Origin: a virus
DNA length: 64,000 nt
Reading direction: 5' to 3' (one strand)
Virus record (IMG/VR): IMGVR_UViG_3300017598_000768
Coordinates: 1 to 64,000 of that record
The translations under genes were made by a program, and so were the position numbers. This document shows positions 6,775-39,064 of this stretch, one piece after another (the first letter of the stretch is position 1; each line of letters starts with the position of its first letter). The notes beneath the pieces were generated by a model. The model was not told where the DNA came from, made no database searches, and saw only the letters and a list, made by a program, of their open reading frames with translations.

Positions 6775-7110
6775 CTACTTCTTTGGAAATCGTATCGTTC
6801 TTACCGCATCACCTACACTCAGCATTCGGACTGTTTTCCGTTCTTCACTGCTAACTGCTGGCATCAACATCTCCAGACTGTCAGGCTCCACGGAGCATCG
6901 CATGCTTACTTCCTCTCTGAGAAGCACACGCTGGTCTAAGCTGCGGACTCCATCAAGAGCAGTGTAATGCTCCATGTACTCACTTTCTACATCGATAACT
7001 ACTGACGAGCACCTGAACTGGAGTGAAGCGACGGGGGCATCTTGTGAGCCTGCTCCCTCAAAGCTTACTATTCCTTCACCAAGCATCATCGAGCTTATTC
7101 TTTCTGACAT
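6775..7110 (-). CDS. hypothetical protein with VRTIRF C-terminal tail
   Basis: ATG at 7110 is preceded by a G-rich ribosome site; an in-frame ATG at 7125 is possible. The 111-residue product looks beta-rich (LQFRCSSVVIDVESEYMEH) and contains RVLLREEVSMRCSVEP. It ends AVRTIRFPKK, a tail shared with the proteins at 26244 and 26536. It lies between the ParB-like gene and the sugar epimerase. Function unknown; a virion component is possible. Confidence 0.65.
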   Translation of the reverse strand: MSERISSMMLGEGIVSFEGAGSQDAPVASLQFRCSSVVIDVESEYMEHYTALDGVRSLDQRVLLREEVSMRCSVEPDSLEMLMPAVSSEERKTVRMLSVGDAVRTIRFPKK

Positions 7111-8135: not shown

Positions 8136-8155
8136 TCATCCTCCTTCACCATTAT

Positions 8156-8171
8156 TTGCAAGCGCTTGCAA
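8156..8171. repeat. dispersed palindrome copy 2 (perfect)
   Basis: TTGCAAGCGCTTGCAA, extended to the perfect 20-bp palindrome ATTTGCAAGCGCTTGCAAAT at 8154-8173. Intergenic, between tRNA-Gly and the epimerase ribosome site. Confidence 0.9.
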
Positions 8172-8192
8172 ATTTTACGCTGCCTCCATTCA

Positions 8193-8267
8193 TGGAGCGG
8201 ACAGGAGGATTCGAACCTCCGACCTCCAAGCGGGGAGCCTGGCACTCTACCACTGAGTTATGCCCGC
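8193..8267 (-). tRNA. tRNA-Gly (anticodon CCC)
   Basis: A 75-nt cloverleaf can be folded by eye. Acceptor is GCGGGCA with TGTCCGC (one G-U), D stem ACTC/GAGT, anticodon stem CCAGG/CTTGG, T stem GGAGG/CCTCC with loop TTCGAAT, and an encoded CCA end. The anticodon loop is CTCCCCG, so the anticodon is CCC, decoding GGG. Position 37 is C, unusual because this site is normally a purine. It lies between the flavin reductase and epimerase genes and is presumably processed from the leftward transcript. Confidence 0.9.
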
Positions 8268-8274
8268 TTTTGTT

Positions 8275-8793
8275 TTAGATACACGCTCTCACTTTTCCAT
8301 CAAAGACAAAGTCTGAGTTATGCTTCCCCCAGTAAAACAGACGGTCTTCTCTTTTCGATCCTTTCGGACCATAATCCGTGCGCCTGACTTCTCCTACAAA
8401 AATCGTGTGCGAGCCAACTGTCATTGACGATATCTTTCTACACACCATAACACACGGAGAACCTTTTAGCAATGGACATACTGACGTGTCCGACCATTCA
8501 ACTCCTTCCATTATTGTCAGCTTATTCCCGTCTACTCCAGAGCATGAGCCGTAAACCCGCGCCAGTTCTGCATCTGCTGATCTTAGAAAATTCACTCCAA
8601 ACCAGTCAGCTGCCATCAACAAGCCGTGCGAGAACCTCCTCTTGCTTATGGCAATCATGTATTGCTGCGGATTATACCCACAGCTCATGTGCCATTCTAC
8701 AGGGAGGCAGTTCGATGGGCCGTCTGGGACTTTCACACTGACCAGAACTATCTCCCTCGGGCCATGTTGAATCCTTTCATCATAACCAGCCAT
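8275..8793 (-). CDS. flavin reductase-like FMN-binding protein
   Basis: The split-barrel fold of the flavin reductase family is suggested by the order of motifs: MSCGYNPQQYMIAISKRRFS near residue 40, GLLMAADWFGVNFLRSAD, and PLLKGSPCVMVCRK followed by HTIFVGEV. Such proteins reduce FMN/FAD with NAD(P)H or bind FMN for another redox reaction. Length (172 aa) is typical. AGGAGGATGC precedes ATG at 8793. It sits in the sugar block between tRNA-Gly and an NDP-sugar SDR; its partner is unknown. It might serve sugar or nucleotide modification, but this is inference. Confidence 0.8.
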   Translation of the reverse strand: MAGYDERIQHGPREIVLVSVKVPDGPSNCLPVEWHMSCGYNPQQYMIAISKRRFSHGLLMAADWFGVNFLRSADAELARVYGSCSGVDGNKLTIMEGVEWSDTSVCPLLKGSPCVMVCRKISSMTVGSHTIFVGEVRRTDYGPKGSKREDRLFYWGKHNSDFVFDGKVRACI

Positions 8794-8802
8794 GCATCCT
8801 CC

Positions 8803-9771
8803 TTACAGCCAAGCAGGATTCTTGATATGCCATTCATACGCTACTCGCATTCCTTCTACGAACGGCGTCGTGGCCTTCCATTCCAGCAGTTCTTCCGTAT
8901 GCGTCGGATCGATATAACTGACCCTGATGTCAATCGCCCTCTTGTCTGTGTGGACAATACCAACATTCGGATTGATCTCCTGCATAGCCTGAGCCATCTG
9001 TAACACTGTCGTCTTCCATCGAGGAACCAGATATACAATCTGATTTCTGGCTTCCGGCCTTAGACACTTGACCTGCGCCTGTACTATGTCTTTCACATAC
9101 AGGCATTGCCTCCATTGGCTTCCGTCACCATGCACTGTGATCTGTTCATCCTCCAAGGCTCCCTTAATGAAATAATGCTCCACAACTCCAGGCATCATTC
9201 TTGGGCCAAAGGCAGTCCCAAAACGCATCTGGGTTACGCTCTGCCCAGTTAGCACATGGTAGTCCCAGAGCGCCATCTCCATCGCAATCTTATTCGATAC
9301 ATACGGGTGGTAGCTTCGCGCCGTGTTGACCCAAGCTTCATTCGATTCAACTTCAAGAGTCACCGGATCACATTTCAGTATCCCAGATATCAAGCTTGAG
9401 CTTGCAACCAGAATTCGTTCGAAATGCCAGTGCCTCTCTTCCGTAAACTCCCTGCACACGTCAAGCAAACAGACGAAACCATACACTCCAGCTTCATAAG
9501 CGGCCCGCGCTCCCATCGCCGACGACACCGTGTGGCTGATCCCGGCAAGGTTGTAGATCACACTGATCTCTTGGTCGTATATTATTTCACGCAGCAGTTC
9601 TTTGTTCGTAATCGAGCCAAGATGCATCTTATCCACGAAACCCTTCACCTGCCTGAACCCACCTAACGATACATCGAGCACAGTCACAACATGACCTTCC
9701 ATGGCAAGCTCTTCGCACAGGTGGCCTCCAATAAATCCATTGCCTCCTATTATCAAGCAATTCCTTTTCAC
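8803..9771 (-). CDS. NAD-dependent epimerase/dehydratase (extended SDR)
   Basis: An extended short-chain dehydrogenase acting on nucleotide sugars. The N-terminal Rossmann glycine motif is GGNGFIGGHL, with an acidic residue at the end of strand 2 (VLDVSLGG). The catalytic Tyr-x3-Lys is YVSNK after SYHP, with Ser residues upstream (VASSSLIS). Length (322 aa) is normal for UDP-glucose 4-epimerase or GDP/UDP-sugar dehydratase types; the substrate is not decidable. The GTG start overlaps the upstream aminotransferase stop by GTGA, so the two are translationally coupled and probably act in sequence. Confidence 0.88.
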   Translation of the reverse strand: MKRNCLIIGGNGFIGGHLCEELAMEGHVVTVLDVSLGGFRQVKGFVDKMHLGSITNKELLREIIYDQEISVIYNLAGISHTVSSAMGARAAYEAGVYGFVCLLDVCREFTEERHWHFERILVASSSLISGILKCDPVTLEVESNEAWVNTARSYHPYVSNKIAMEMALWDYHVLTGQSVTQMRFGTAFGPRMMPGVVEHYFIKGALEDEQITVHGDGSQWRQCLYVKDIVQAQVKCLRPEARNQIVYLVPRWKTTVLQMAQAMQEINPNVGIVHTDKRAIDIRVSYIDPTHTEELLEWKATTPFVEGMRVAYEWHIKNPAWL

Positions 9772-10940
9772 TTCAGCACCTCCTTCACTACTTCCTCCGT
9801 CACCTCGCAGGCCCTTGCAATCTCAGCATCCGTCATGAATTCATAGAACGGCATACAGATATGCCTTTGGGAAAAATCCCAAGCTACCGGAAAGTTCAAA
9901 TTTCCGTACCTGTTCAGATAAATCGGCTGCCTATTAATCGGTAGATCGTACACATCACCTGACAGATGAACTCCCTTTGCTCCAGTCCGCTGTTTTATCA
10001 GTATCTTCTTATCATGCGTACAGCCGGAAGGCAGCATCACCATATACTTGTAATAATTGGACTTGAGATTCGGCGTCTCCGGAACCTTCCGCAGAACATC
10101 GTCATACAACTTAATGCACGCGTCGTATCTTCCCGCGACACGCCTTCTTTCTTCTACAATCTCTTCAACTATTTTCGTCTGTTCCAGCCCAAGAGCTGCC
10201 GTGAACTCCGTCATGCGGAAATTGTTTGCATCGCGGATAATCACCGATATGCTGAAATTCCCGGATCTGCCATAGTTGCGGTACAGTTTGGCCTCTGCTT
10301 CCCATTCAGGATCGTCCATTAGCAGCATTCCGCCCTCCGCCGTATTCAGTACTTTCGTGGCATAGAACGAGAAGCATGCAATGTCACCAATGTCTCCTAC
10401 TTTCACTCCGTCTATCTCCGTACCATGACCATGAGCAGCATCTTCCAGTACCCAGATATCGTTTGCATCACAATACTTCGCAATCTCTAAGGCGTCACCA
10501 TTAACGTGACCTCCGCACGGCATCAAGCATACAGCCTTCAGCAAAAGTCCGAGCACACTCCTTGCCTCCATCACTTGCTGCAACGTGAAATTGATATTAT
10601 TATTCATATCAATATCAGCAAACCATGGCTTGCCTCCAGTTCTGTCGAGGGCAGTCACCACCGAGTAAAAACCATTCGCCGGTACCATCATATACCCTCC
10701 ATCGATATTCAATAGCTGCGGCTTCAACGCAATCTCCAGTGCAGCTGTATCATTCGATACCGCCACTCCATAGCTTCTTCCGCAGTAACCTGACCAGGCA
10801 CGTTCAAAACTTTTCGTTTCTTCTCCGAGGATCACCCAACCACTGTCAAGAATCTTATCCCATCTCTTCTTGACCGCAGCCATCATGTCTTCACGGTACA
10901 CAATCTTTGCCCCCGGAATCACCATTGCTTCGTTCTCCAT
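9768..10940 (-). CDS. DegT/DnrJ/EryC1/StrS-family sugar aminotransferase
   Basis: A PLP-dependent transaminase of the family that aminates keto-sugars. Visible motifs: VSNDTAALEIAL (cofactor-phosphate region), VLEDAAHGHG with the PLP-stacking Asp, and SFYATKVLNTAEGGML with the Schiff-base Lys in ATK. ATG at 10940 is preferred, five bases after GGAGG. Length (390 aa) is typical. It lies directly upstream of the SDR gene with a 4-bp overlap; together they could convert a nucleotide sugar to its amino-deoxy form. Confidence 0.9.
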   Translation of the reverse strand: MENEAMVIPGAKIVYREDMMAAVKKRWDKILDSGWVILGEETKSFERAWSGYCGRSYGVAVSNDTAALEIALKPQLLNIDGGYMMVPANGFYSVVTALDRTGGKPWFADIDMNNNINFTLQQVMEARSVLGLLLKAVCLMPCGGHVNGDALEIAKYCDANDIWVLEDAAHGHGTEIDGVKVGDIGDIACFSFYATKVLNTAEGGMLLMDDPEWEAEAKLYRNYGRSGNFSISVIIRDANNFRMTEFTAALGLEQTKIVEEIVEERRRVAGRYDACIKLYDDVLRKVPETPNLKSNYYKYMVMLPSGCTHDKKILIKQRTGAKGVHLSGDVYDLPINRQPIYLNRYGNLNFPVAWDFSQRHICMPFYEFMTDAEIARACEVTEEVVKEVLK

Positions 10941-10949
10941 GAACACCTC

Positions 10950-11645
10950 CTATTCTCCTGTTTCTGAGTTCCAGCCGCCTTTTCGCTCCCATTCCTTTCT
11001 GAAGGGCGACTTTTCTTTGAACAAACACACCATAAAATCATGCGGAGCATACGAATGATCTACCATAACACGTTCACTCATTCGTCTGGCCTGCTGAAAC
11101 ACCCATACAGGGTCAAAGGCCATTTCATTCTCGTCGCACTCCGTCATATACGTACTGTGAACCGTAATCGCACAACCACGGACACACGATCGATACATAA
11201 AATCCATTATATCGAGAAACATCTTGTTCGCATGGGACAGTCTGCAATCTCGTCTCGCAAATACTCCAAGGGCCACACACCATGCATGTGTATGGATCTG
11301 CCCCCAGTTAATGACATCATCGAGTACGTCTCTCGTAATAAATGAGGCTGCGTCGTCTTCCTTGTAACGGCGGGCCGCGAACTCTATGGCTGGCTCATAT
11401 ATATCAACCCCTAAGTAGTCTCCACCAATCCTCATCTCTCTAAGATACGAAAGAAAATCCGCTGTGCCACAACCGACATCAAGCCAGCTCTCTTCTGGCA
11501 GTGGCAAGAGATTTGCTAATACCCTATGAAACCTGAGCCTTTGCACCCATTTCGTCGGTGATATCCACTTCTCCAGTCCATGATTGTTCAGCCGCGAATC
11601 ATAGTACCTTGCGTTCAGCTCGGCCTGTTGGCTCACATCATTCAT
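10950..11645 (-). CDS. class I SAM-dependent methyltransferase
   Basis: The SAM-binding motif I is WLDVGCGTADFLSYL at about residues 54-68, with motif II acid in YLGVDIYEPAIEFA. Length (231 aa) is common for small-molecule methyltransferases. AAGGAG precedes ATG at 11645. Its stop is about 10 bp from the aminotransferase start. A sugar or glycan substrate is inferred from the neighbours only. Confidence 0.8.
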   Translation of the reverse strand: MNDVSQQAELNARYYDSRLNNHGLEKWISPTKWVQRLRFHRVLANLLPLPEESWLDVGCGTADFLSYLREMRIGGDYLGVDIYEPAIEFAARRYKEDDAASFITRDVLDDVINWGQIHTHAWCVALGVFARRDCRLSHANKMFLDIMDFMYRSCVRGCAITVHSTYMTECDENEMAFDPVWVFQQARRMSERVMVDHSYAPHDFMVCLFKEKSPFRKEWERKGGWNSETGE

Positions 11646-12219
11646 ACTTTCTCCTTTTCATCATTGCTAACAATATCCTTTCCGCCATCGTCTTGTATCC
11701 GAGATTATTCAGATGGACTCCATCGGCATAACAGTCTTCCGGAATCCTCGCCATGTCCACCAACTCAACAATCCGTCCCCAGTCACCTGAAATCTTCACA
11801 AGCTCTTCATTGTAATCATCAATCAGGTCCGGGCGCATGAAGTCCGGTGCCCCAAAACCTTTGAGCGCCGGTATCGTACACAGGTAACTGACTTTCTCCC
11901 AGCGCTTCGCACACCTAAGAATAGCATTCACCTGTTCTGCATATCGTTCTGGTGGCGTCTGCACCTGTATCTTCGCGTCATTCGTTCCGCACAGGAGAAC
12001 CATCTCCGTCGCCTCCGGATACGATCGAAGCACCTTGTATGCTCTCTTGTAGATATCAATAGACGTCTCTCCATTCACACCTTCATTTATGCAGTTCCAA
12101 TTCTGTTTGAACGTCTTCCACAAAAGCAGCTCAAGCTCGACAGGATAGCCTCGCCAAAAATCACAACGAGCGCCAGCTGTCAAGCTGTCACCAAGGCAAA
12201 TTATACTTCCGTATACCAT
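11638..12219 (-). CDS. SGNH/GDSL-family hydrolase
   Basis: Catalytic blocks are plain: CLGDSLTAG (block I Ser), EGVNGETS (block II Gly), CGTNDAK (block III Asn) and DGVHLNNLGY (block V Asp-x2-His). The family includes esterases and carbohydrate de-O-acetylases. In this context, with hexapeptide acyltransferases at 41-43 kb, trimming of acetyl groups from host or virion glycan is a plausible role. No signal peptide. Length (193 aa) is typical. AAGGAGGCG precedes ATG at 12219. Confidence 0.88.
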   Translation of the reverse strand: MVYGSIICLGDSLTAGARCDFWRGYPVELELLLWKTFKQNWNCINEGVNGETSIDIYKRAYKVLRSYPEATEMVLLCGTNDAKIQVQTPPERYAEQVNAILRCAKRWEKVSYLCTIPALKGFGAPDFMRPDLIDDYNEELVKISGDWGRIVELVDMARIPEDCYADGVHLNNLGYKTMAERILLAMMKRRKYE

Positions 12220-25982: not shown

Positions 25983-26250
25983 CTTCGAATCGTTCCTCTA
26001 CTTCATCGGCTTTGGTTTGCAAGCGCTTGCAAACACTGGTCCAGCGCCAGTCTTGAAATGCAAAAGTGGTTGCGCACCCCAAATGAGTTATACAAGTCTC
26101 CGTATTCCCCCGCTCATAATGCTTCAAAGCAGACAGGGCAAATGTCCAGAACACAATCGGACCGTACAACCACCACTTCTTCCACCTCCAATAAAAATGG
26201 AAATGGAAAAAATACATGCGCCAACCTACAAAATACAACAGCTTCACCAT
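25948..26250 (-). CDS. aromatic-rich membrane protein, 100 aa
   Basis: AGGAGGCAGAAGAA precedes ATG at 26250. The first 40 residues are very rich in Trp, Phe and Tyr (MYFFHFHFYWRWKKWWLYGP, then IVFWTFALSAL), probably one or two membrane segments. The C-terminal half is charged and helical (KADEVEERFEDAKTRR). The palindrome at 26017-26032 encodes CKRLQ here. Function unknown; position between primase and small proteins gives no clear hint. Confidence 0.55.
   Translation of the reverse strand: MVKLLYFVGWRMYFFHFHFYWRWKKWWLYGPIVFWTFALSALKHYERGNTETCITHLGCATTFAFQDWRWTSVCKRLQTKADEVEERFEDAKTRRNKFPA
26017..26032. repeat. dispersed palindrome copy 6 (perfect)
   Basis: TTGCAAGCGCTTGCAA, extended to a perfect 20-bp palindrome GTTTGCAAGCGCTTGCAAAC at 26015-26034, 35 bp upstream of the primase start and inside the membrane-protein gene. 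Confidence 0.9.
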
Positions 26251-26546
26251 TTCTTCTGCCTCCTAAAACGGATCGTCCTCACCAGCTCGTATTTCATTCT
26301 CTCCACATCTGCTTTGGTGAGTTGCAGCTTGGGAGAAGCTACCCCTTCTCCTGTAAGTGCCTGTACAGCCTTTATTGACTCTCTGAGGTTCACCCCAGCA
26401 ACACTTCCAGCCACCGCCGCATAACGAAACGCCTCCGCCATCTGGCTCATGGACATCCTTGACCTATCGACCGCTTTTTGCATCGCCTTAGCTAATGCTT
26501 TTGCATCTACATCAAGGTTAACATGTATTTTAATTTTAGTCGCCAC
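26244..26546 (-). CDS. hypothetical protein with VRTIRF tail, 100 aa
   Basis: The N-terminus is IKIHVNLDVDAKALAKAMQK, a strand then a helix; the middle is Ala-rich (YAAVAGSVAGVNL). The end LVRTIRFRRQKKW shares the VRTIRF motif with the next gene upstream and with the protein at 6775. It overlaps both neighbours by about 10 bp. No family recognised. Confidence 0.65.
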   Translation of the reverse strand: MATKIKIHVNLDVDAKALAKAMQKAVDRSRMSMSQMAEAFRYAAVAGSVAGVNLRESIKAVQALTGEGVASPKLQLTKADVERMKYELVRTIRFRRQKKW

Positions 26547-26811
26547 CTTTCTTAAACCTTATCGTTCGTACCGGCTCCCTAAGCTTCGGTAGTTTCACAT
26601 TGCTCACAACTGCAACAACGCCGTCTTTCAACGGACTATTACCGCACACCATCAAATGCTCTCGCATTACAGGAATGATAATCTCCCTTAACACCATCTC
26701 CAATAAGTCTTCTTCTGACGGTATCGTATTCAACGCCAACGCCTCATCAAATTCCCCAATCGCTGCTCCGCGACCCTCAATCACTTTTCTGTTTCTTATA
26801 TTAGAAGTCAT
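26536..26811 (-). CDS. hypothetical protein with VRTIRF tail, 91 aa
   Basis: Contains SEEDLLEMVLREIIIPVMRE (helical) and VVAVVSNVKLPKL (strand), ending PVRTIRFKKGGD. The tail is almost the same as that of the adjacent downstream protein, though the rest is unlike it. It overlaps the DnaB-like gene by 11 bp. Function unknown. Confidence 0.65.
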   Translation of the reverse strand: MTSNIRNRKVIEGRGAAIGEFDEALALNTIPSEEDLLEMVLREIIIPVMREHLMVCGNSPLKDGVVAVVSNVKLPKLREPVRTIRFKKGGD

Positions 26812-28054
26812 AGTCCGTTACTCCTACACCAACTCCGCGAACCACCGAATGCTGACTGATATTCATTCGATCCATGTCGTAGTGGATTCTGATCACTCCA
26901 CGCTCCCCCTCACGACCTTTCAACAATTCAAGCAGCTTGTATCCTTCAAGCTCCGCAGGATCATCCGGCTCTCCCTCATCTTCGATCCCAATAACCATAC
27001 TCGCAAGCTGACCGACAGCATCTGACAATGCAATATTCCCAAGGCTTCCCGGTCCCCTTCGGTTGAACTGATACGTTGCGATCACTGGGATCATAAACTC
27101 CGTTGCAATCTTCTTCAAATACTCTGCCGTCGACGTTACACGTTCCCAGTGCGACTCCTGACGCCCTGACGTTCTCAACATATAAGCGCCGTCGACATAA
27201 ACTATATGAGGTCTCGTTTCCCGAATTCTCAACACCAAGTCGTCGACAGTACTGGTGAGGGTTCCTTGCATAAAATAAAATGGATGAGTCGCTCCATCTG
27301 CAATATTCGCCAATGCGTCTCCGACGACCCTTCTACCCAACCACCCGACCTTGCCAATACGAATCAACGTGGCTGGTACATGCGATCGTAGAGCAAGAAT
27401 ACGTCGAACACACTGCTTGACCGGCATCTCCAGCGTCACTACCAGCGGGATTCTGCCATGGTTATACGCATTATTCGCGTTACTCAAGAGCAAATAGCTC
27501 TTTCCCATCCCTGGTCTACCTACCAGCGCCACCGTATCCCCTGGTTGAGCGCCATTGGATACATAATCGAGGTGCTCTATTCCAAACGGCACCCCATCTA
27601 TATAACCCTTTCTCCGTAGTTCATCGTGGTCGACAACCACCGCATCGGCTACATCCTTCAGCTGATGCAATCTTTCCTCCGGATGTCTCTCTTCGAGGCG
27701 CAGGTAAACATCTCGAACAGCAGTCCGAGCTTCAGCCACCTGCCCTTCCCTCAACAGCTCATCAACACGAGCATTCGCCTCCGACAGCATAAACGACTGA
27801 TGCCTCTGCTCAAATCTGTCTAACCAGTAGCCAATCGGTTCATCAGGGAAAGGCTGAATCACCACTCCGGTTTCTGCCTCTATGGTTTCAACCTCTGGCA
27901 AGCGACCGAACTGGATTACGTGCTCATTCATGTATTCGAACACAGGCTTCTCATCGCCCCTAAACAAATCCCCTGAAATTCCGTGCTCACCCAGCAGCGT
28001 CATAGGACTGCTATCCTGAACCATTCGTATTAAGAGCCCAAGACCTACACTCAC
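26801..28054 (-). CDS. DnaB-like replicative helicase
   Basis: Hexameric 5'-3' fork helicase. The RecA-like C-terminal domain starts at about residue 160 with GDTVALVGRPGMGKSYLLL (Walker A GRPGMGKS), then VVTLEMPVKQCVRRIL, Walker B-like HIVYVDGAYML and IPVIATYQFNRRG (Q-loop and arginine). The N-terminal 110 residues are the usual DnaB collar, shorter than in E. coli. GTG start at 28054 with AGGTG upstream. Ends 417 aa. It follows directly the genes at 28057 and 28731 in the operon leading away from the origin-like region. Confidence 0.9.
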   Translation of the reverse strand: MSVGLGLLIRMVQDSSPMTLLGEHGISGDLFRGDEKPVFEYMNEHVIQFGRLPEVETIEAETGVVIQPFPDEPIGYWLDRFEQRHQSFMLSEANARVDELLREGQVAEARTAVRDVYLRLEERHPEERLHQLKDVADAVVVDHDELRRKGYIDGVPFGIEHLDYVSNGAQPGDTVALVGRPGMGKSYLLLSNANNAYNHGRIPLVVTLEMPVKQCVRRILALRSHVPATLIRIGKVGWLGRRVVGDALANIADGATHPFYFMQGTLTSTVDDLVLRIRETRPHIVYVDGAYMLRTSGRQESHWERVTSTAEYLKKIATEFMIPVIATYQFNRRGPGSLGNIALSDAVGQLASMVIGIEDEGEPDDPAELEGYKLLELLKGREGERGVIRIHYDMDRMNISQHSVVRGVGVGVTDYDF

Positions 28055-28056
28055 AA

Positions 28057-28734
28057 TTACACCTGTCCTTTCCTAATTGTCAGCTTGTCAATCTTTTTCG
28101 TTACTCCGAGAACATCAGCCTTCTGTTCTATAATCGCTGTCACACCAACTCCAAAACCGTTCTTGATGTCAGCAAAAACTTGCGAGACTGACTTTGCGCT
28201 GACTGCCTTTTCCGACAAAACTGGAAACATTGTCCTCGCATTCCTCAATCCCGCCCGCTTGCTCAACGTATTATAAAAACTTCCGGCATAGCTTAGACTC
28301 AACGCCCCTCCCTGCGTTATGCCATCCAAAACTAAAAATCCAGCATGTGTCAGCGAATGAACCGCCTCTCCAGCTGGATCAATTTCAAAATCATCACGTG
28401 GTAGCCTTGCTCGATAGAATCGTAACATATCCTCGACGGACGAATTGAACACTTTCATTCTCGTCGTGAGACAAACCGTTGACGGAACATAAATTGCAAG
28501 CGATTGCAAAAGCTCCAAACTATTACTCATTACAAGCAACCACGGCTTCGCCTTTTCCTTGAAAAAAGCGTCGAGCACCATGTCGATGCCCTTTTTTGTG
28601 CTATCGTCCGGCTCCACTTCTATTTTTTTAAGAGGATACCCTCTCTTGTACATCAAATCATACAGCCTGTCCTTCGTGAATTGGTTTCCTTTGAACTTCG
28701 ATGAGTCCCACGGATAAACATATTTACCAGTCAT
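28057..28734 (-). CDS. hypothetical replication-operon protein (possible helicase loader)
   Basis: Between the initiator-like gene (ATGA overlap) and the DnaB-like gene (2-bp gap), where many phages carry a helicase loader. However, no Walker A is visible; segments such as KPWLLVMSNSLELLQSLAIY and GFLVLDGITQGGALSLSY have the spacing of a degenerate P-loop fold. 225 aa. The loader role is inference from position. Palindrome copy 7 lies in the coding region. Confidence 0.6.
   Translation of the reverse strand: MTGKYVYPWDSSKFKGNQFTKDRLYDLMYKRGYPLKKIEVEPDDSTKKGIDMVLDAFFKEKAKPWLLVMSNSLELLQSLAIYVPSTVCLTTRMKVFNSSVEDMLRFYRARLPRDDFEIDPAGEAVHSLTHAGFLVLDGITQGGALSLSYAGSFYNTLSKRAGLRNARTMFPVLSEKAVSAKSVSQVFADIKNGFGVGVTAIIEQKADVLGVTKKIDKLTIRKGQV
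28494..28509. repeat. dispersed palindrome copy 7
   Basis: TTGCAAGCGATTGCAA within the gene at 28057-28734, about 1.6 kb left of the origin-like region. Confidence 0.88.
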
Positions 28735-29672
28735 ACCTCGCCTTCCTCCACAATGAATCTTTCGTCATCATCAGGTTTCTCTGAGCCCCCATCCATCATG
28801 TCGCATACCAGCCAGTCCATTATCTGCCTGCGGTATCCATAAAACTGTGTGAAGTTGACCGACCTTGACAGGCGAACCTTCTTCCCGTCTTCATTCGTCA
28901 TGTCCGTCCTGAACTCCGCCCACCTTCTACACACAGTTTCGAGCAGCTCTACCGGCTCCAGTTCTGCCAGCTCCATTTCCTTCAACCAGTTTCTGGCTTG
29001 ACCCAGCAGCTTCTTCGTCCAAGAATCATTATAAGGGCAGCCTTCCAATTCACAAAACTCTCTCATGATACTGCCAATCCATGACGGCTTCAGCTTGCTG
29101 CTTTTTCTCCTTTCGATTATCTTCTTTCTTGTTGCGATTCCTCTGGCACGTGCTTTTTCACCAAGGGCACGCATCGTATTCTCCTGCCCGGTCGTTTCTT
29201 TCATTGGTTTGACTCCACCATCGTTCATGTGTTTTGACAACCTATCACGCAGATCACTTAACACTTGTAGCCCATACCTTTCTGACTCGTCACCGTAGAA
29301 TACCTCCGTCTTCTCAATGACAAAACTAATAACACCAATCACGTTTGGAGTTATCAATGTCTGATGTCGCACTCCTTTCATTTTATTTCTGAAAGTGAAA
29401 ATACCCCTTTTCGACAAATCAGTTTTCGCTCTCGACACTGCGTCTTCTGAAACACCAACGCTATCACAACAGCCGAAACGCCACCACTTGTCTCCATCGA
29501 AAAAACACCGCGTATACATCAACTTCTTGAATCGCCCTTCTCCAACAGTTCGATCCCACAAAAAATTAAAAAGGAGTTTCTGAACTCCTTCCTTAATTAA
29601 AAAATGCTCGACAGTGCGACCACAATTAAAAATAACCCGCCTGTCCTCAAGTAGTGGGAAAACTTTCTTCAT
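28731..29672 (-). CDS. putative replication initiator, winged-helix type
   Basis: First gene of the leftward replication operon, with GGAGG upstream of ATG at 29672. The N-terminal 110 residues resemble the winged helix of phage replication proteins (O/DnaD-like): CCDSVGVSEDAVSRAKTDLS followed by KRGIFTFRNK. A basic central segment (KARARGIATRKKIIERRKSS) and an acidic C-terminus (DDDERFIVEEGEV) follow. 313 aa. Such initiators commonly bind repeats in or next to their own gene; the A+T-rich repeat region immediately upstream would suit. Confidence 0.6.
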   Translation of the reverse strand: MKKVFPLLEDRRVIFNCGRTVEHFLIKEGVQKLLFNFLWDRTVGEGRFKKLMYTRCFFDGDKWWRFGCCDSVGVSEDAVSRAKTDLSKRGIFTFRNKMKGVRHQTLITPNVIGVISFVIEKTEVFYGDESERYGLQVLSDLRDRLSKHMNDGGVKPMKETTGQENTMRALGEKARARGIATRKKIIERRKSSKLKPSWIGSIMREFCELEGCPYNDSWTKKLLGQARNWLKEMELAELEPVELLETVCRRWAEFRTDMTNEDGKKVRLSRSVNFTQFYGYRRQIMDWLVCDMMDGGSEKPDDDERFIVEEGEV

Positions 29673-29708
29673 AAGCCGACCTCCGAAAAAAATTACATCG
29701 TTAAATAA

Positions 29709-29737
29709 TGAATATCACACATACCGCACTTTGTCAA
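29709..29737 (-). promoter_or_regulatory. probable promoter of replication operon, leftward
   Basis: On the minus strand a perfect TTGACA (29737-29732), a 17-bp spacer and TATTCA (29714-29709), followed by GGAGG and the initiator-like ATG at 29672. The -10 is weak. Confidence 0.55.
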
Positions 29738-29920
29738 GGGATTTATTTCACATGCCAAAAAAACCGACAGCGGCACAGCGGCGCGAAATGTCCCAAATTC
29801 TTTTTCTCTTTAACAGCTGAAAATCTTTGTGTAAAATCACTTTGGAAAAACTGAGAAAAAATCTTTGTGAAAAGATGCGGGATGCGCGAAGCGCTATCTC
29901 TAAAATCTTTTTAATCTTTT

Positions 29921-29940
29921 CTTTTTACTTTAGTAAAAAG
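29921..29940. repeat. inverted repeat CTTTTTACT-TT-AGTAAAAAG
   Basis: Nine-bp arms around a 2-base centre. It shares the core TACTTTAGTA with the inverted repeat 28 bp to the right; possible binding sites or an unwinding element of the origin-like region. Confidence 0.7.
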
Positions 29941-29948
29941 GAAAGATC

Positions 29949-29968
29949 GTAAATACTTTAGTATTTAC
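29949..29968. repeat. inverted repeat GTAAATACT-TT-AGTATTTAC
   Basis: Nine-bp arms around TT. Second member of the TACTTTAGTA pair. Confidence 0.7.
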
Positions 29969-30066
29969 TATGGGAGAAGTAGGCGTAGGACCCACTTTTT
30001 ACCCGACCCACGTGTGGTGGTTGCAATCACTCGTTGCAATCACACTTTTGGCTAATATTCTCCAAC

Positions 30067-30091
30067 AAAAAAATTTGCAAGCGATTGCAAA
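30067..30091 (-). terminator. palindrome copy 8 acting as possible leftward terminator
   Basis: Read on the minus strand, TTTGCAATCGCTTGCAAA can fold into a 7-bp stem with loop TCGC, followed by seven T residues (plus-strand A-run 30067-30073). That is the form of an intrinsic terminator for leftward transcripts arriving from the 30.2-31.8 kb genes, isolating the origin-like region. Confidence 0.5.
30075..30090. repeat. dispersed palindrome copy 8
   Basis: TTGCAAGCGATTGCAA, 8 bp upstream of the -35 of the rightward promoter at 30099. Confidence 0.9.
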
Positions 30092-30098
30092 AAAAGAC

Positions 30099-30127
30099 TT
30101 GACAAGTGTGATTCGGTGTGCTATTAT
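30099..30127 (+). promoter_or_regulatory. near-consensus sigma-70-type promoter, rightward
   Basis: TTGACA (30099-30104), a 17-bp spacer, TATTAT (30122-30127). It is the only clear plus-strand promoter and drives the short RNA at 30134-30216. Confidence 0.85.
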
Positions 30128-30133
30128 ACAGAA

Positions 30134-30216
30134 AATGGCGGTAGTAATCCTCGTACTTGCCGCCCCGCCGACCTGAAGCTCACTGTCACCTGTCAGATAG
30201 TGGGCTTCACTTTTTT
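30134..30216 (+). ncRNA. short plus-strand transcript with micro-ORF
   Basis: The interval from the predicted start (about 30134) to the T-run of an intrinsic terminator is only about 83 nt. A first hairpin can form between GGCGGTAG (30137-30144) and its partner at 30157-30164; the second is the terminator. An ATG at 30135 opens a 13-codon frame, MAVVILVLAAPPT, rich in Val/Ile/Leu, whose TGA touches the terminator stem. It is virtually leaderless. No sense gene follows; the 3' end is antisense to the last codon of the gene at 30207. It could be a regulatory RNA, an attenuator-like leader or a replication-linked transcript. Confidence 0.6.
30175..30216 (+). terminator. intrinsic terminator of the short transcript
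   Basis: GAAGCTCACT (30175-30184) pairs with AGTGGGCTTC (30199-30208), one G-U, followed by AC and six T residues (30211-30216). Confidence 0.8.
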
Positions 30217-30509
30217 GGAACAAACATTTTCTCCACAGTACTTTCAGACGACACCAGCATCTTATCCAGCAGATCTATCTCTGCTTGGATCGCATCTTTT
30301 CTTTCCGTAAAAACATACTCTGTTCTCTGCTCTGTTCCGTCTGGTTTTACCACCCAGATACGCCATTTTTGATCGACTTCATCCCAACGAATATTAGATG
30401 CTCGTCTGATTTGCAGCTGACCAAAATCTCGGAGCATTGATTCGTCATCATACATGAAAAAGATCTCTCCTTCTTTCGAAATCCTAATCGTAATTTCTTT
30501 TCCTGCCAT
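30207..30509 (-). CDS. hypothetical protein, 100 aa
   Basis: ATG at 30509 follows AGGAGGGGGAC, preferred to a longer frame to 30551. The sequence KEITIRISKEGEIFFMYDDE and KWRIWVVKPDGTEQRTEYVF suggests a small beta sheet, with a C-terminal helix (KDAIQAEIDLLDKML). It lies downstream of the DUF2997/DUF1257 pair in the same direction, and may belong with them. Its stop codon overlaps the plus-strand terminator. Confidence 0.7.
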   Translation of the reverse strand: MAGKEITIRISKEGEIFFMYDDESMLRDFGQLQIRRASNIRWDEVDQKWRIWVVKPDGTEQRTEYVFTERKDAIQAEIDLLDKMLVSSESTVEKMFVPKK

Positions 30510-30566
30510 GTCCCCCTCCTGAAACAGCAGCAGCTCCACAGGTAATCCCATGGAGCTGCGCGTATT

Positions 30567-30758
30567 TTATGCTCCGACTTTCACTCCGCTACCGCCTGAC
30601 TGGTGGTACTCGGGCTTCTTTTTAACCTCCGTGTTACCAAGTTTCTTCATGATATCACCCATGAAGTCTAAACAGCCAGTGCCTTCAAACTTCTGAGCGT
30701 CAATCTCCACCTCGGAACCATCGGCACTTATTTTAATCTCGTACTCTCCTTGTGGCAT
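30567..30758 (-). CDS. DUF2997-like protein, 63 aa
   Basis: The pattern EIKISADGSEVEIDAQKFEG, then TGCLDFMGDIMKKLG and a polar tail containing KKKPEY, matches DUF2997 proteins (a beta hairpin with the phrase G-x-x-C and a helix ending in LG). Function of the family is unknown, but it is typically next to DUF1257 (Ycf35), as here, and near Ycf46-type ATPases. The ORF is short and intact. Confidence 0.7.
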   Translation of the reverse strand: MPQGEYEIKISADGSEVEIDAQKFEGTGCLDFMGDIMKKLGNTEVKKKPEYHQSGGSGVKVGA

Positions 30759-30773
30759 TACGTCACCTCCCCA

Positions 30774-31172
30774 TTATGCGGCCCTGACTTTTAAAACAAG
30801 CGACCCGTCAGGATTCTCTGTGCGGTTTTTAATCCTACCACCTTTTCTTCGCACACCTTTTTCAATGAAACTCTGCGAGTAACCTCTTGTCAGTTTGCCG
30901 CCGTTCCTGCCAAGACGACCCGTCAATGAACTGTACCTCGGATCGTTGTCAATAATCAATCGAAAACCACCGCCGTCCTTGACCAAAAATGCCTCTCGAC
31001 GGCTTCCACGACCACCACCAACCTGATCACGCAGGGTTGCTTGAACTTCGTATCCCCTCATTTTAAAATTGGCGTCTGTGTTTTCGATATACTCAACACT
31101 TTGCTGATCACATGATCTCTTGAAACATTCAAGATCGCTTATAACCACACCACATTTTGCCCAGAAACTCAA
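30774..31172 (-). CDS. DUF1257/Ycf35-like protein
   Basis: The start (MSFWAKCGVVISDLECFKRS) matches the DUF1257 opening, in which a short strand is followed by DL-x-CLK. The middle has GYEVQATLRDQ and EAFLVKDGGGFRLIIDND, and the C-terminal QSFIEKGVRRKGG fits the family's last helix region. 132 aa, typical length. It is immediately upstream of the DUF2997 gene. Similarity is judged by eye, so moderate confidence. Confidence 0.6.
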   Translation of the reverse strand: MSFWAKCGVVISDLECFKRSCDQQSVEYIENTDANFKMRGYEVQATLRDQVGGGRGSRREAFLVKDGGGFRLIIDNDPRYSSLTGRLGRNGGKLTRGYSQSFIEKGVRRKGGRIKNRTENPDGSLVLKVRAA

Positions 31173-31224
31173 AAGACACCTTCCTTTCTTCTAAATGTTT
31201 TTGTGAATAATAAATACATACCCC

Positions 31225-31734
31225 CTACTTCTTGCCACCTCCCTTCCCAATTCGTATCGCTCTGATTCCTTTTCGCAACACTGTCTTGTCAATCGTTATC
31301 ATCTTCCTCAACGTATCTACCGGGAGCATCCCTTGTCTGGATACAAAACGTGCAGACTCTGAACCTTCACCAAGCAGCTTAATCGCCGCCTTGTTCGATA
31401 TGAAGCTCCCCTGAGCCTGAAAAAAATATCCGGTCTTGTCAACGCTGAACGGCTTCAAAGTCACAAGCGGAAATGCATTGCCCATGCGTATATAAAAGGA
31501 ATAGTATCGCTTTCGAATGCCAAATCCCTGCTCCGACACAAAAACTTTCACTATCGGATACACACACTGCCAGTAGTCCTCATCTTTTTCATGCACTTGA
31601 ACCACCAACGAGTTCTCCTTCATCTGGTAGAACGGAACCTCGTTCCCATTGACCAGAAAAAACAGCATGAACTTCTCCAGCCTGTGTTGCTGGCTTTTTA
31701 CTGCCCCGCCTCGCCATTTGAATTTACACACCAT
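31225..31734 (-). CDS. hypothetical protein, 169 aa
   Basis: GAGG lies about ten bases before ATG at 31734, and a strong promoter with an operator-like inverted repeat lies upstream, so this is the first gene of the DUF1257/DUF2997 unit. The sequence mixes strands (MLFFLVNGNEVPFYQM, YYSFYIRMGNAFPLVTLKPF) and ends LRKGIRAIRIGKGGGKK, a basic tail loosely like the VRTIRF tails elsewhere. No family recognised. Confidence 0.7.
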   Translation of the reverse strand: MVCKFKWRGGAVKSQQHRLEKFMLFFLVNGNEVPFYQMKENSLVVQVHEKDEDYWQCVYPIVKVFVSEQGFGIRKRYYSFYIRMGNAFPLVTLKPFSVDKTGYFFQAQGSFISNKAAIKLLGEGSESARFVSRQGMLPVDTLRKMITIDKTVLRKGIRAIRIGKGGGKK

Positions 31735-31752
31735 ATCATCATCCTCGCCTCT

Positions 31753-31790
31753 GTTAGTGTTATTTCCATTGTTTAGATAATAACACTAAC
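31753..31790. promoter_or_regulatory. operator-like 12-bp inverted repeat
   Basis: GTTAGTGTTATT (31753-31764) and AATAACACTAAC (31779-31790) are perfect inverted arms separated by 14 bp. The right arm covers the -10 of the leftward promoter at 31777-31805, the centre covers the likely start site. This is the layout of a repressor operator. Confidence 0.75.
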
Positions 31791-31805
31791 TAACTGGAAT
31801 GTCAA
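31777..31805 (-). promoter_or_regulatory. consensus sigma-70-type promoter, leftward
   Basis: On the minus strand a perfect TTGACA (31805-31800), a 17-bp spacer, TATTAT (31782-31777). Palindrome copy 9 lies 16 bp upstream of the -35. Confidence 0.85.
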
Positions 31806-31821
31806 GTGTTTTTCGAGTTAT

Positions 31822-31837
31822 TTGCAATCGCTTGCAA
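31822..31837. repeat. dispersed palindrome copy 9
   Basis: TTGCAATCGCTTGCAA, 2 bp beyond the stop of the gene at 31840 and 16 bp upstream of the next promoter's -35. Confidence 0.9.
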
Positions 31838-31839
31838 AC

Positions 31840-32196
31840 TTAGCGGCCTGTCTCTACGGCATCTTCCGGCTTCTTTCGACCCTTCACTTTGTGCAACTCG
31901 TCTTCTCCGAAGTCCTCGTCAAATCTTCGGTCCAGCATCCCATCGCTTCCACCTTTTAAGCGCTCTGGGATTTCAATATCTTCAACGTCTGGGTAATCCG
32001 TTGCTGAAGCACTCTGGGTCTCTTTTCCTTTGTGGCTCGTTACTGGCATCTTCTCCTCCTTATTTTTTCTATCATAAATGTTGTGGCATATCGCAGCTGC
32101 TTGGATTGGATCATTGGCTGTTCCTTCCTCAATCACATACGGTATGCATCTGTCAACAAAATCTTTCCTTGATTCACCTTCTTGCGGTACTGGCAT
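31840..32196 (-). CDS. hypothetical protein of the portal region, 118 aa
   Basis: ATG at 32196 follows GGAGGCGTG. The opening MPVPQEGESRKDFVDRCIPY, with AAAICHNIYDRKN at about 36-48, is a pattern found in many phage proteins encoded near portal and head-protease genes; the role is not known to me. The remainder is polar and acidic (DEDFGEDELHKVKG). Last gene of the head block before the promoter at 31.8 kb. Confidence 0.7.
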   Translation of the reverse strand: MPVPQEGESRKDFVDRCIPYVIEEGTANDPIQAAAICHNIYDRKNKEEKMPVTSHKGKETQSASATDYPDVEDIEIPERLKGGSDGMLDRRFDEDFGEDELHKVKGRKKPEDAVETGR

Positions 32197-32204
32197 CACG
32201 CCTC

Positions 32205-32444
32205 CTACGCATCATATCCAAACTTCCACAACTCCATCACTAAAACACTGAAATGCTTTTTCGTTCCGGCCTTGTAAGTCACCTTCATTGTGCCTCGAAC
32301 ATTCCCATAGTTTTCGGCAGTTCTTGTTGTGTAATCAGATATCAACAGCTTCCTCAGCTTTTTGTCCTTGGTCTTTACAACTGGACCCTCCCCAGCGACC
32401 CAGCTGAACTCCCCAACCTTCTTGCCTTTTTTATAAATATTCAT
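32205..32444 (-). CDS. hypothetical protein, 79 aa
   Basis: A small, probably beta-rich protein: KKVGEFSWVAGEGPVVKT and GTMKVTYKAGTKKHFSVLVM. It overlaps the end of the MuF gene by 14 bp and ends 8 bp before the next start. Position suggests a head-related role; no family recognised. Confidence 0.65.
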   Translation of the reverse strand: MNIYKKGKKVGEFSWVAGEGPVVKTKDKKLRKLLISDYTTRTAENYGNVRGTMKVTYKAGTKKHFSVLVMELWKFGYDA

Positions 32445-35704: not shown

Positions 35705-38700
35705 CTATATCGTGAGTTCTTTCATTTCAGCTGCATTCAGTCCTACCGAAATCCCCGCCGATAACGGCACAGACATCTTGTAGCCAAAGTCTCTCTCAAT
35801 AGGCGGATTCTCCATCTCGTACTTGACTATTTTAGCGTAATCTTCTACCTTCGAATTATCTTTTACCTCGTATACCAGTTCGTCATGGATAAACAAGACG
35901 TTTCTGAACTCCTCCGGATTCAAATCCCTCTTGTCAATTTCGTTGTTCGCCATCAATACAACATCTGACGACGGATTCTGGATTGGATGATTCACTGCCA
36001 TCCTTTCTGCTCTCCTCTTAACGCCATAATTCTTTGCATTAATTTCCGGTAGACGCCTTCTCCTGCCAAAGATGCTTTCTACATACCCCAGAATCTTGCA
36101 CGACTCGATTATCCTACGGTGGTACTTCGGAAGCCCCGGATACATACCAAAGAACACTTTGATGTACTCCTTCGCCTGCTTCAACGTCAGCTTCACTCCA
36201 TACTCTCTCCACGAATACTCAACAAAACCGTCTGGAGACATCAAAAACAACAGACCAAAATTCACTGCCTTTGCACTTTGCCTCCCTTTCTCAATTCCTG
36301 CCTTGTCAAGCCTATCCCATTTCGGATGCCCAATTAGCCTCTCCGCTGTCGCAAGGTGAATATCTCGGTGATCAATGAACACCTGTTTCATGTTCTTGTC
36401 TCCAGACACCTCAGCAGCCCATCTCAATTCAGAGTTCTTCGACACAAGGCCATTCGCCAATACATACGTATGGACGTTCTCAACCTCAATCTGACAGGTT
36501 TCGACCATCCCAACCTCTCGTATTTCAACAACCTTATGGTTTCGCGGCCTCCTTGGAAAAAACAGATTGCTGCACCTTTTCGAACACGTTGTCTCATGCG
36601 CTTTCGACGGCGGCCTGTAAAACGTCGTTCCGCACACAGGGCAGGTTTTCGTCGCCCCGCTCCTTCGACCATACATCGGGTTGTTTCTTCCAGACGCATG
36701 TATCGACTTATGCTGCGAAACAGTTAATACTTCAATATTGCTCCGTACCCAGTTCACCTTGTCGAAATCTTCGTGGTGCGTCTCATACCCTTCAGGCACT
36801 TCACCTCCGGCTAAGTAGTTCGCCACTACGATATGCTTTCTCACTTGCTGCTTATCTTCGACCCACCATCCTCGGCTTGAAATGCCCCAAGTCGGATAGT
36901 CACTACCACTCGACCAGACATGCATTAGCTTATCTCCGACGACAATTTGATCTGCAAACTGCCACTCCCCAGACCACATTCTAAATCTGTGATCTACGGA
37001 ACACTTCGTACTGGAGCCATCTTCCAGCACAATCTCGATTACTTTCTTGAGACCTGTACTGCCTCCACTCACAACATTCTGGAACGTCAGCTCTCCGTCG
37101 TCGTCAACCGTCAGAACTGGCGTCAGTCTTTCAATAACCTGAGCCAGTGTCTGCACACCATCTATCGTGATAAGCTCCGTCTCCGGGACTAAACATTGCT
37201 CTTGATCTGACGCCATCAACAGATAGCCTGGCCTTGCAACAATTAAACGCCTTATCTGTTTTGACGCCTCGGACCTTTTGGGATTGTTCATCATGTTCGG
37301 GTCGCTGCTTGCAACCCTTCCAGTAACCGCCCTCGTCAACGTATTCGACGAATGGACTCTCCCGTCATACTTCACATGCTTTCTGAATCCATTCAGATAG
37401 CGGCTATCCAACGTGTGATACTCGCTCCACTCGTCAAAAGCCTTCAAGAATCGTCGCGCCGGTGCTGGAATACGTGAAGCCAGCAATTTCTTCCTGACCT
37501 CCTTGTCAACAGACCATGCATCTCCACCCTTCGTTTTCTTTACAGGCGGAAGTCCAAAACCTCTTTCATTAAACAACACGTCCCTTACCAAATCGTCGCG
37601 TGTCAGCTTTAGCCCTTTTTTCTGGTGAAGCTCCATCTCCTTGACTGCGTCAGGGGCTACATTCATCGCAATGTTAAAATTCTTCTTGATCACCTTCCTC
37701 ACTGCCTTCTGCACTTCAGGAAGCTCCTCAAGATCAATCGCGGCTCCGTTCTCTTCAAGCCAAAACAGCGATCGGTGTAATGTCGGCTGGACAAAACGCG
37801 CCGTGTAGCGGAGAAGTCTGAAATTCTCCTTCTTTCTCAGCTCCTCTCTAATTGCAAGACCAGCCTGCAACGTTATGTCAGCATCAGCACACGCATACGG
37901 CGTCCTATCGTGCGTTGGGACCGCAAGCATGTCTGCTTTGTCGTGCTTCTGCTCGAACACCAGATTGTAGTTCCCTCTTACATCAGTGAACGCTCGCTGA
38001 ACAGCAACCAGACTTGCCAACTGGAAATTATTTTCGTCTATGACGTGTGCCGCCGCCTGTACATCCATAGCATAGCCTTGAATCTTCGGCGGCTCAATTT
38101 CATTACGTCTGCATAGAGCATGAATCGAATGCAGATCGTAATTCCCGGCAAACAAATACTTTCTGATCTTCGGGTTTTCAACAAACGATAGCAGATCGAG
38201 CACCTTCCGCTCAAAATTATCCGCTCGCTTCACGTACACCGTTGTCGGTGCTTTCCGCTTCTTACCTTCCTCCTTTCGAGGCCATGTTATCGTAAAATCG
38301 TAATCGTCCTCATCACCTTCTTCATACAATATCACATCATACGCCTGCCCCTTCATCAAAGATATTGAATAAGACAACATCAGAAAGTTTTCGTCCATCC
38401 AATCTTTGCCTTGGGTTTCTGTATCAATACTTGCGTCAAATGGCAAGACCATCTCACGCAAAAAATCCAAGGACTGAACTTCCTGATAGTCTGTCTCCCT
38501 GTCCTCCTTCAGTGGCTTAAACTTATTCCGTATAAACGCAATCAGCGAATCCATGCTCTGCTCAAATATGAGCTTCTTCGACGGATTTCGCAGAATGTAT
38601 GCTGGGTGAAACATCGGTAATACCCAGCAGTTAAACTCCTTGTTCCACCTCCAGCCCTCGTCTATCGCCTTCGTGATTCCACTCTTACGTTCAATCTGCC

Positions 38701-39064
38701 TAAGCGCAATGTCTCCCAAACAAACAACCGCTTTTGGCTTCATGAAATGCAACAACTTCTCAAGCTTCACTCTGCAACATTTGAGAACCTTTGTAATTTC
38801 TTTCGCCGACATTTCATCTTTATTAATCATGCAACGTCCCGAGTTTGCCAGCATTGTCTTTGGGATACTCAAACCTTTGCCCTTCGCCGTTTCTCGTAAA
38901 AGCACTCCTGCATCACCGATAAAAGGTTTCGGCGGCCTTGCAAATATCTCACTCTTACCAGGCGATTCTCCGACCCATACTATCTTTGCGTTTGTTGGCC
39001 CTGAATACGGAACCTCTGTTTTCTTGCGAAGGGGACACTCCAGACACAACCCTGTCTTTGCCAT
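35705..39064 (-). CDS. polA: DNA polymerase I with N-terminal UDG-like domain and intein
   Basis: Residues 1-180 look like a family 4/5 uracil-DNA glycosylase: VWVGESPGKSE, PFIGDAGVLLRE and the signature MFHPAYILRNP, with cysteines at CLECPLR and near CRVKLE that could hold an FeS cluster. A 3'-5' exonuclease follows (DASIDTET; later YACADADITLQ). The polymerase domain has TGRVASSDPNMMNNP, motif A split by the intein (ASDQEQ | SELRW), motif B KAVNFGLLFLMSPDGF and motif C FIHDELVYEV. A UDG-like domain fused to Pol I is known in SPO1-type phages. 1119 aa with the intein, about 865 after splicing. Confidence 0.92.
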   Translation of the reverse strand: MAKTGLCLECPLRKKTEVPYSGPTNAKIVWVGESPGKSEIFARPPKPFIGDAGVLLRETAKGKGLSIPKTMLANSGRCMINKDEMSAKEITKVLKCCRVKLEKLLHFMKPKAVVCLGDIALRQIERKSGITKAIDEGWRWNKEFNCWVLPMFHPAYILRNPSKKLIFEQSMDSLIAFIRNKFKPLKEDRETDYQEVQSLDFLREMVLPFDASIDTETQGKDWMDENFLMLSYSISLMKGQAYDVILYEEGDEDDYDFTITWPRKEEGKKRKAPTTVYVKRADNFERKVLDLLSFVENPKIRKYLFAGNYDLHSIHALCRRNEIEPPKIQGYAMDVQAAAHVIDENNFQLASLVAVQRAFTDVRGNYNLVFEQKHDKADMLAVPTHDRTPYACADADITLQAGLAIREELRKKENFRLLRYTARFVQPTLHRSLFWLEENGAAIDLEELPEVQKAVRKVIKKNFNIAMNVAPDAVKEMELHQKKGLKLTRDDLVRDVLFNERGFGLPPVKKTKGGDAWSVDKEVRKKLLASRIPAPARRFLKAFDEWSEYHTLDSRYLNGFRKHVKYDGRVHSSNTLTRAVTGRVASSDPNMMNNPKRSEASKQIRRLIVARPGYLLMASDQEQCLVPETELITIDGVQTLAQVIERLTPVLTVDDDGELTFQNVVSGGSTGLKKVIEIVLEDGSSTKCSVDHRFRMWSGEWQFADQIVVGDKLMHVWSSGSDYPTWGISSRGWWVEDKQQVRKHIVVANYLAGGEVPEGYETHHEDFDKVNWVRSNIEVLTVSQHKSIHASGRNNPMYGRRSGATKTCPVCGTTFYRPPSKAHETTCSKRCSNLFFPRRPRNHKVVEIREVGMVETCQIEVENVHTYVLANGLVSKNSELRWAAEVSGDKNMKQVFIDHRDIHLATAERLIGHPKWDRLDKAGIEKGRQSAKAVNFGLLFLMSPDGFVEYSWREYGVKLTLKQAKEYIKVFFGMYPGLPKYHRRIIESCKILGYVESIFGRRRRLPEINAKNYGVKRRAERMAVNHPIQNPSSDVVLMANNEIDKRDLNPEEFRNVLFIHDELVYEVKDNSKVEDYAKIVKYEMENPPIERDFGYKMSVPLSAGISVGLNAAEMKELTI
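36434..37195 (-). mobile_element. intein with HNH homing endonuclease in polymerase motif A
   Basis: The insert is 254 codons. It begins with Cys (CLVPETELITIDGVQTL, block A), has a block B-type CSVDHRFRMW, and ends HTYVLANGLVSKN before Ser+1 (blocks F/G). The middle carries HHEDFDKVNWVRSNIEVLTV ending with a His-x3-His, an HNH nuclease, plus CPVCGTTF and CSKRCSN as a zinc site. It lies exactly within the catalytic motif A (D-x-x-Q-S-E-L-R), so splicing is needed for activity. All splice-junction residues look intact. Confidence 0.92.

What the first reader, a model, noticed from the sequence alone, without database searches (positions are those of the whole stretch)
30099..30216. Isolated promoter-RNA-terminator unit with a Val/Ile/Leu-rich 13-codon ORF
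A near-consensus promoter (TTGACA-17-TATTAT) is followed after about 83 nt by a strong intrinsic terminator, with no sense gene beyond. The RNA holds two hairpins and a nearly leaderless ORF MAVVILVLAAPPT whose stop touches the terminator, as in amino-acid attenuators. Palindrome copy 8 is 8 bp upstream of the -35. It is against the direction of nearly all other genes.
Basis: partly seen in the sequence, partly recalled or inferred. Interest (0 to 1): 0.75.

Follow-up and report, generated by a model that had tools for sequence, protein, structure and literature searches.

The report
Counter-transcribed short RNA at phage origin
The virus carries a short self-ending RNA gene that runs against all its neighbours and sits beside what looks like its DNA-replication start site; the same arrangement, with different sequence, recurs in a dozen related viruses, so it is probably a replication or transcription control element rather than an amino-acid sensor.

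Summary
A near-consensus promoter (TTGACA-17-TATTAT with TG before the -10, 30099-30127, +) drives a predicted ~82-nt RNA of two hairpins that ends in a strong intrinsic terminator; the fold z-score is -5.4. The attenuator reading does not hold: there is no sense gene downstream, no alternative fold, and no conserved peptide. Relatives settled what it is. Helicase and portal searches gave 12 diverged viral contigs with the same gene order: 169aa-132aa-63aa-114aa, slot, ~313aa putative initiator, ~225aa, DnaB. In the slot, on the strand opposite the genes, all 12 carry a TTGAC(A/T)-17-bp promoter, a 68-160-nt structured RNA and a terminator. Several were picked by eye; an automatic scan found the unit in 8 of 16 close relatives on the opposite strand, 1 of 16 on the sense strand, and 0.1 in shuffles. 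Between unit and initiator most relatives have 12-mer repeats, often 21-23 bp apart, and an AT-rich stretch: a candidate origin. A TTGCAAKCGMTTGCAA operator just upstream of the -35 recurs in several. Architecture is kept, RNA sequence is not. Best reading: an analogue of lambda pO-oop-tO, a convergent promoter that limits transcription entering the origin. No expression data exist.

The parts
30075..30090 (.). Palindromic operator-like site TTGCAAGCGATTGCAA, 8 bp upstream of the -35
   Evidence: a site 7-9 bp upstream recurs in L093, L096 (TGCAATCGCTTGCA core) and L098, and a degenerate one at 6 bp in L094
30099..30127 (+). Promoter TTGACA-17-TATTAT with TG before the -10
   Evidence: the same -35 and 17-bp spacer in 12 relatives
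30134..30215 (+). Predicted ~82-nt counter-transcribed RNA
   Evidence: inferred from promoter and terminator; fold z -5.4
30137..30164 (+). 5' hairpin
30174..30209 (+). Terminator hairpin, followed by CTTTTTT
30135..30176 (+). 13-codon ORF MAVVILVLAAPPT, not conserved, probably incidental
30207..30551 (-). 114-aa gene; its stop codon lies in the end of the terminator
   Evidence: homologues in L013, L014, L015, L017, L018, L019
30567..30758 (-). 63-aa gene of the same cluster
30774..31172 (-). 132-aa gene of the same cluster
31225..31734 (-). 169-aa gene, first of the cluster
31777..31805 (-). Facing sense promoter TTGACA-17-TATTAT, with palindrome 31822-31837 upstream
   Evidence: TTGACA-17 promoters also upstream of the 169-aa homologue in several relatives
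29673..30074 (.). Candidate replication origin: AT-rich, inverted repeats; 21-23-bp-spaced repeats in most relatives but not clearly here
29709..29737 (-). Weak candidate promoter of the putative initiator gene (TTGACA-17-TATTCA)
   Evidence: sequence; below the scan threshold
28731..29672 (-). 313-aa putative replication initiator, identified by position and a weak winged-helix-like model
   Evidence: the syntenic HJ05 protein weakly matches Phage_rep_O
28057..28734 (-). 225-aa conserved gene between initiator and helicase
26801..28054 (-). DnaB-like replicative helicase

Best explanation
The unit is a counter-transcribed, self-terminating short RNA gene at the phage replication origin, an analogue of the lambda pO-oop-tO unit. 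Shown from sequence: a strong opposite-strand promoter, a structured short RNA, and a terminator that usually ends at or near the stop of the last upstream sense gene, held in the same slot upstream of a putative initiator and DnaB in 13 diverged genomes. Inferred: the sense promoter at 31805 sends polymerases toward the origin and initiator. The facing promoter fires against them, and by polymerase collision, and/or by pairing of the RNA with read-through mRNA in this leader, it limits transcription into the origin and initiator expression. The terminator keeps the RNA from running far into the 114-aa gene. A phage regulator binding the upstream palindrome probably sets when the promoter is on; whether it activates or represses is unknown.
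For: Conserved gene order around the slot. In the window and 12 relatives the opposite strand of the slot has TTGAC(A/T), a 17-bp spacer and a -10 with A2 and T6 in 13 of 13 and TG before it in about 8 of 13. Exact TTGACA in these slots: 12 on the opposite strand, 1 on the sense strand, 1.7 in shuffles (maximum 6). Automatic promoter-plus-terminator scan: 8 of 16 close relatives on the opposite strand, 1 on the sense strand, 0.125 in shuffles; distant DnaB relatives 1 of 27. RNA folds z -2.1 to -9.2. Twelve-mer repeats above the shuffle maximum in L014, L018, L019, L093, L094, L098, L103 and L016, with 21-23 bp steps in most, plus AT-rich stretches. The syntenic HJ05 protein weakly matches Phage_rep_O and PHROG O-like initiators. 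Convergent TTGACA-17 sense promoters recur. Lambda pO lowers pR-driven expression and its loss impairs lambda replication (PMC3985674).
Against: No expression data. About seven of the 13 promoters were recognised by eye, and some -10 elements are weak (L094 TAGGCT, L016 TACCTT), so the exact 17-bp spacing in those is partly a choice. The window's own slot has no clear iterons. The initiator role rests on position; its model matches winged-helix proteins only insignificantly (best E 0.13). A possible initiator promoter lies downstream of the unit, which would weaken an antisense role on initiator mRNA. Two relatives (L016, L102) have a sense ORF across the promoter. L104 and L107 gave no clear unit.
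Confidence: 0.55

Rival explanations
1. A plasmid-style counter-transcribed RNA (like R1 CopA) that pairs with the leader of the initiator mRNA and limits initiator synthesis, so setting replication frequency.
For: Two-hairpin RNA on the opposite strand upstream of the putative initiator; architecture kept while sequence diverges freely, as expected when target and RNA change together.
Against: The unit lies about 90-620 nt upstream of the initiator start, with repeats between them; the window and L093 may have initiator promoters downstream of it. Whether the initiator mRNA contains the complementary sequence is unknown.
Confidence: 0.2
2. A trans-acting small RNA that pairs with phage or host mRNAs, for example through CU-rich loops resembling the 16S anti-Shine-Dalgarno tail.
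For: UCCUC in the loop of the window RNA; CACCUC or CUCCU stretches in several relatives.
Against: Anti-SD 5-mers are not significantly enriched: 26 against 17.5 in shuffles, 29 of 500 as high. No consistent pairing with neighbouring gene starts: Stouffer z -0.6 to -2.1 over seven gene sets, not corrected for multiple tests. No conserved seed. Host mRNAs were not tested.
Confidence: 0.13
3. Primer or transcriptional activator of the origin: what matters is polymerase activity beside the origin, not the RNA.
For: Promoter beside the candidate origin; RNA sequence not conserved.
Against: Transcription runs away from the repeats; for lambda oop the primer idea was abandoned (PMC3985674).
Confidence: 0.1
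4. Amino-acid attenuator or leader peptide.
For: MAVVILVLAAPPT ends at the terminator.
Against: No downstream sense gene, no alternative hairpin, peptide absent from relatives.
Confidence: 0.02

Closest known systems
Lambda pO-oop-tO unit (OOP RNA)
   Same: Short self-terminating RNA (77 nt in lambda) from a promoter facing the early sense promoter, between an upstream gene and the initiator/origin, transcribed away from the origin and ending at the upstream gene
   Different: No sequence similarity found; overlap with the upstream gene is at most about 9 nt here against 55 nt of cII; repeats lie between the genes, not inside the initiator; the neighbouring genes are not lambdoid; a dispersed palindrome sits at the promoter
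Plasmid counter-transcribed RNAs (R1 CopA, other antisense copy-number RNAs)
   Same: Strong opposite-strand promoter, short RNA of hairpins, upstream of an initiator gene (from own knowledge of these plasmids)
   Different: Not shown to overlap the initiator mRNA; distance to the initiator start is large and variable
RNA-based origins of extrachromosomal mycobacterial prophages (RedRock and others; PMC7157519)
   Same: Phage noncoding RNA tied to replication
   Different: Those lack an initiator protein and the RNA region is required for replication; here a putative initiator gene is present

Membership tests
Lambda oop RNA | Short RNA from a promoter convergent with the early sense promoter, next to the origin and initiator gene | tested here: met
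   Position, direction and facing promoters in the window and several relatives; the origin itself is inferred
Lambda oop RNA | Sequence homology to a known phage RNA | tested here: not met
   No blastn match of 29700-30600 among 50,697 phage records; no Rfam match above the gathering score in this stretch
Lambda oop RNA | Substantial antisense overlap (55 nt) with a regulator gene such as cII | tested here: not met
   Overlap with the 114-aa gene is at most 9 nt; that gene has no Pfam family and only a weak match to a PHROG of unknown function
Lambda oop RNA | Lowers sense transcription reaching the origin | not testable with these tools
   needs transcript measurement
Plasmid counter-transcribed RNA | RNA complementary to the leader of the initiator mRNA | not testable with these tools
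   initiator transcription start unknown; candidate promoters lie on both sides of the unit
Amino-acid attenuator | Regulated gene downstream in the same direction | tested here: not met
   no sense gene beyond the terminator
Amino-acid attenuator | Mutually exclusive antiterminator and terminator | tested here: not met
   one dominant structure
Amino-acid attenuator | Conserved leader peptide rich in the regulated amino acid | tested here: not met
   absent from 12 relatives

The most novel reading that the evidence does not exclude
A non-lambdoid group of roughly 100-kb phages controls replication with a counter-transcribed RNA whose promoter is set by a phage regulator that also occupies a dozen or more copies of the same palindrome across the genome, so that one protein couples genome-wide control to origin control.
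Probability: 0.15. Interest if true: 0.75.

Novelty: new variant of a known kind. Interest (0 to 1): 0.55.

Why it matters
Origin-proximal convergent RNAs are well studied mainly in lambdoid phages. Finding the same layout, without sequence similarity, across diverged uncultivated phages with their own DNA polymerase and helicase suggests that opposing transcription at a phage origin is a recurrent solution. It gives many natural variants for comparison and points to the replication origin of this poorly known group.

Tried and rejected
Amino-acid attenuator: rejected. Anti-Shine-Dalgarno mimicry: not significant. Pairing with neighbouring gene starts: no consistent signal. Known RNA family: none. 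Conservation from the near-identical contig L003: uninformative. Nucleotide search among named phages: none. A DNA pattern scan of viral contigs found only that contig. Helicase search of genome contigs: no relative; the portal search gave relatives at 39% or less, and of nine extra loci scanned (L188, L189, L190, L192, L202 from that search, and L179, L180, L109, L110) none showed the slot genes, so the host stays unknown. HJ05 and RcMenchie each have a candidate opposite-strand unit upstream of the syntenic DNA-binding gene, but weaker (9/12, and 10/12 with a 16-bp spacer); five other named phages scanned did not. The G016 contig breaks inside the slot region.

Full report
What was checked. 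The window is the first 64 kb of a 99,832-base virus record. In the whole record this is the only + strand promoter of at least 10 of 12 matches followed closely by a strong terminator, and the RNA folds far better than its shuffles (z -5.4). Two further facts matter. The terminator ends at the stop codon of the - strand gene 30207-30551, and an equally strong - strand promoter at 31805, also with the palindrome upstream, faces the unit.

Finding relatives. Single-protein searches returned only contig L003, which is identical over 26585-32240 and so uninformative. Alignments of portal and DnaB proteins reached viral contigs at about 39-55% identity. The gene order 169aa-132aa-63aa-114aa-slot-313aa-225aa-DnaB is kept, with some losses and insertions.

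The unit recurs. Reading the slot in each relative gave a unit on the strand opposite the genes in L014, L015, L016, L017, L018, L019, L093, L094, L096, L098, L102 and L103. With a 17-bp spacer, all 13 promoters, the window's included, read TTGAC(A/T), have A at position 2 and T at position 6 of the -10, and most have TG before it. Because several were recognised by eye, two less selective tests were made. An automatic promoter-plus-terminator scan of the region upstream of DnaB found the unit in 8 of 16 close relatives on the opposite strand, 1 on the sense strand, and 0.125 on average in shuffles. Exact TTGACA occurs 12 times on the opposite strand of the 13 slots, once on the sense strand, and 1.7 times in shuffles. 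More distant DnaB relatives show no excess (1 of 27). The RNAs are 68-160 nt, fold with z from -2.1 to -9.2, and are not alike in sequence.

What lies next to it. Between unit and initiator, eight relatives have 12-mers repeated more often than in any shuffle (L014, L018, L019, L093, L094, L098, L103, L016), in most with 21-23-bp steps, along with AT-rich stretches. That is how initiator-bound iterons and an unwinding element look, so the slot is a candidate origin; the window's own slot has inverted repeats and AT-rich DNA but no clear iterons. The 313-aa protein is called an initiator from position. Its model has modest confidence (pLDDT 72) and only insignificant winged-helix matches; the syntenic protein of Aeromonas phage HJ05 weakly matches phage replication protein O (E 5.6e-5, below the curated cut-off).

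The palindrome. TTGCAAGCGATTGCAA is one of 13 exact and 4 one-mismatch copies of TTGCAAKCGMTTGCAA across the first 81 kb. A palindrome 7-9 bp upstream of the -35 recurs in L093, L096 (core only) and L098, and a degenerate one at 6 bp in L094. Several relatives carry many copies of the same or a related palindrome. Its binding protein was not identified.

How it most likely works. The layout matches lambda: sense promoter, upstream genes, convergent short RNA, origin, initiator, helicase functions. In lambda, pO lowers pR-driven expression and its loss impairs replication, with polymerase interference the favoured explanation (PMC3985674); OOP is 77 nt and overlaps cII by 55 nt (PMC3349717). 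By analogy the unit would limit transcription entering the origin. This is inference: no transcript has been measured, and an antisense role on initiator mRNA or a trans-acting role remain possible. Tests of the latter found nothing significant. It works like oop; it is not a member of that family by sequence or by overlap with the upstream gene.

Noticed in passing
window 358, 8156, 13433, 18999, 23028, 26017, 28494, 30075, 31822, 33666, 40171, 47639, 56206, 62459; record 71789, 77107, 81093: Dispersed palindrome TTGCAAKCGMTTGCAA, none found in the last ~19 kb; several copies sit directly upstream of a Shine-Dalgarno-like sequence or near strong promoters (30099, 31805, 18970). Looks like a dispersed operator set.
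   Followed up: partly
L268 and L109 (record G016), L017, L098: Relatives have their own centre of the palindrome: G016 has 17 copies of TTGCAAACGTTTGCAA, L017 TTGCAATAAATTGCAA types, L098 mostly TTGCAATTGATTGCAA, which suggests a co-evolving DNA-binding protein.
   Followed up: partly
window 5868-6761: Protein with a ParB N-terminal domain match; not tested as the palindrome-binding protein.
   Followed up: no
window 35705-39064: DNA polymerase gene of 1,119 aa with an HNH-endonuclease-like stretch in the middle; relatives' homologues match on both sides of it without it, so probably an insertion such as an intein.
   Followed up: no
window 26061-26584 against L003: The otherwise near-identical contig lacks 168 bp here and is diverged beside it; the palindrome copy at 26017 differs by G to T within the allowed motif.
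   Followed up: no
window 7095-12219: Cluster of sugar-modifying genes: UDP-GlcNAc 2-epimerase, NAD-dependent epimerase, DegT aminotransferase, methyltransferase, GDSL lipase.
   Followed up: no
L002 14577-19740 (record 94.6-99.7 kb): Right end holds consensus TTGACA-16/17-TATAAT promoters on the - strand at 99740 and 99251, and small genes mostly without families: probably the early region.
   Followed up: no
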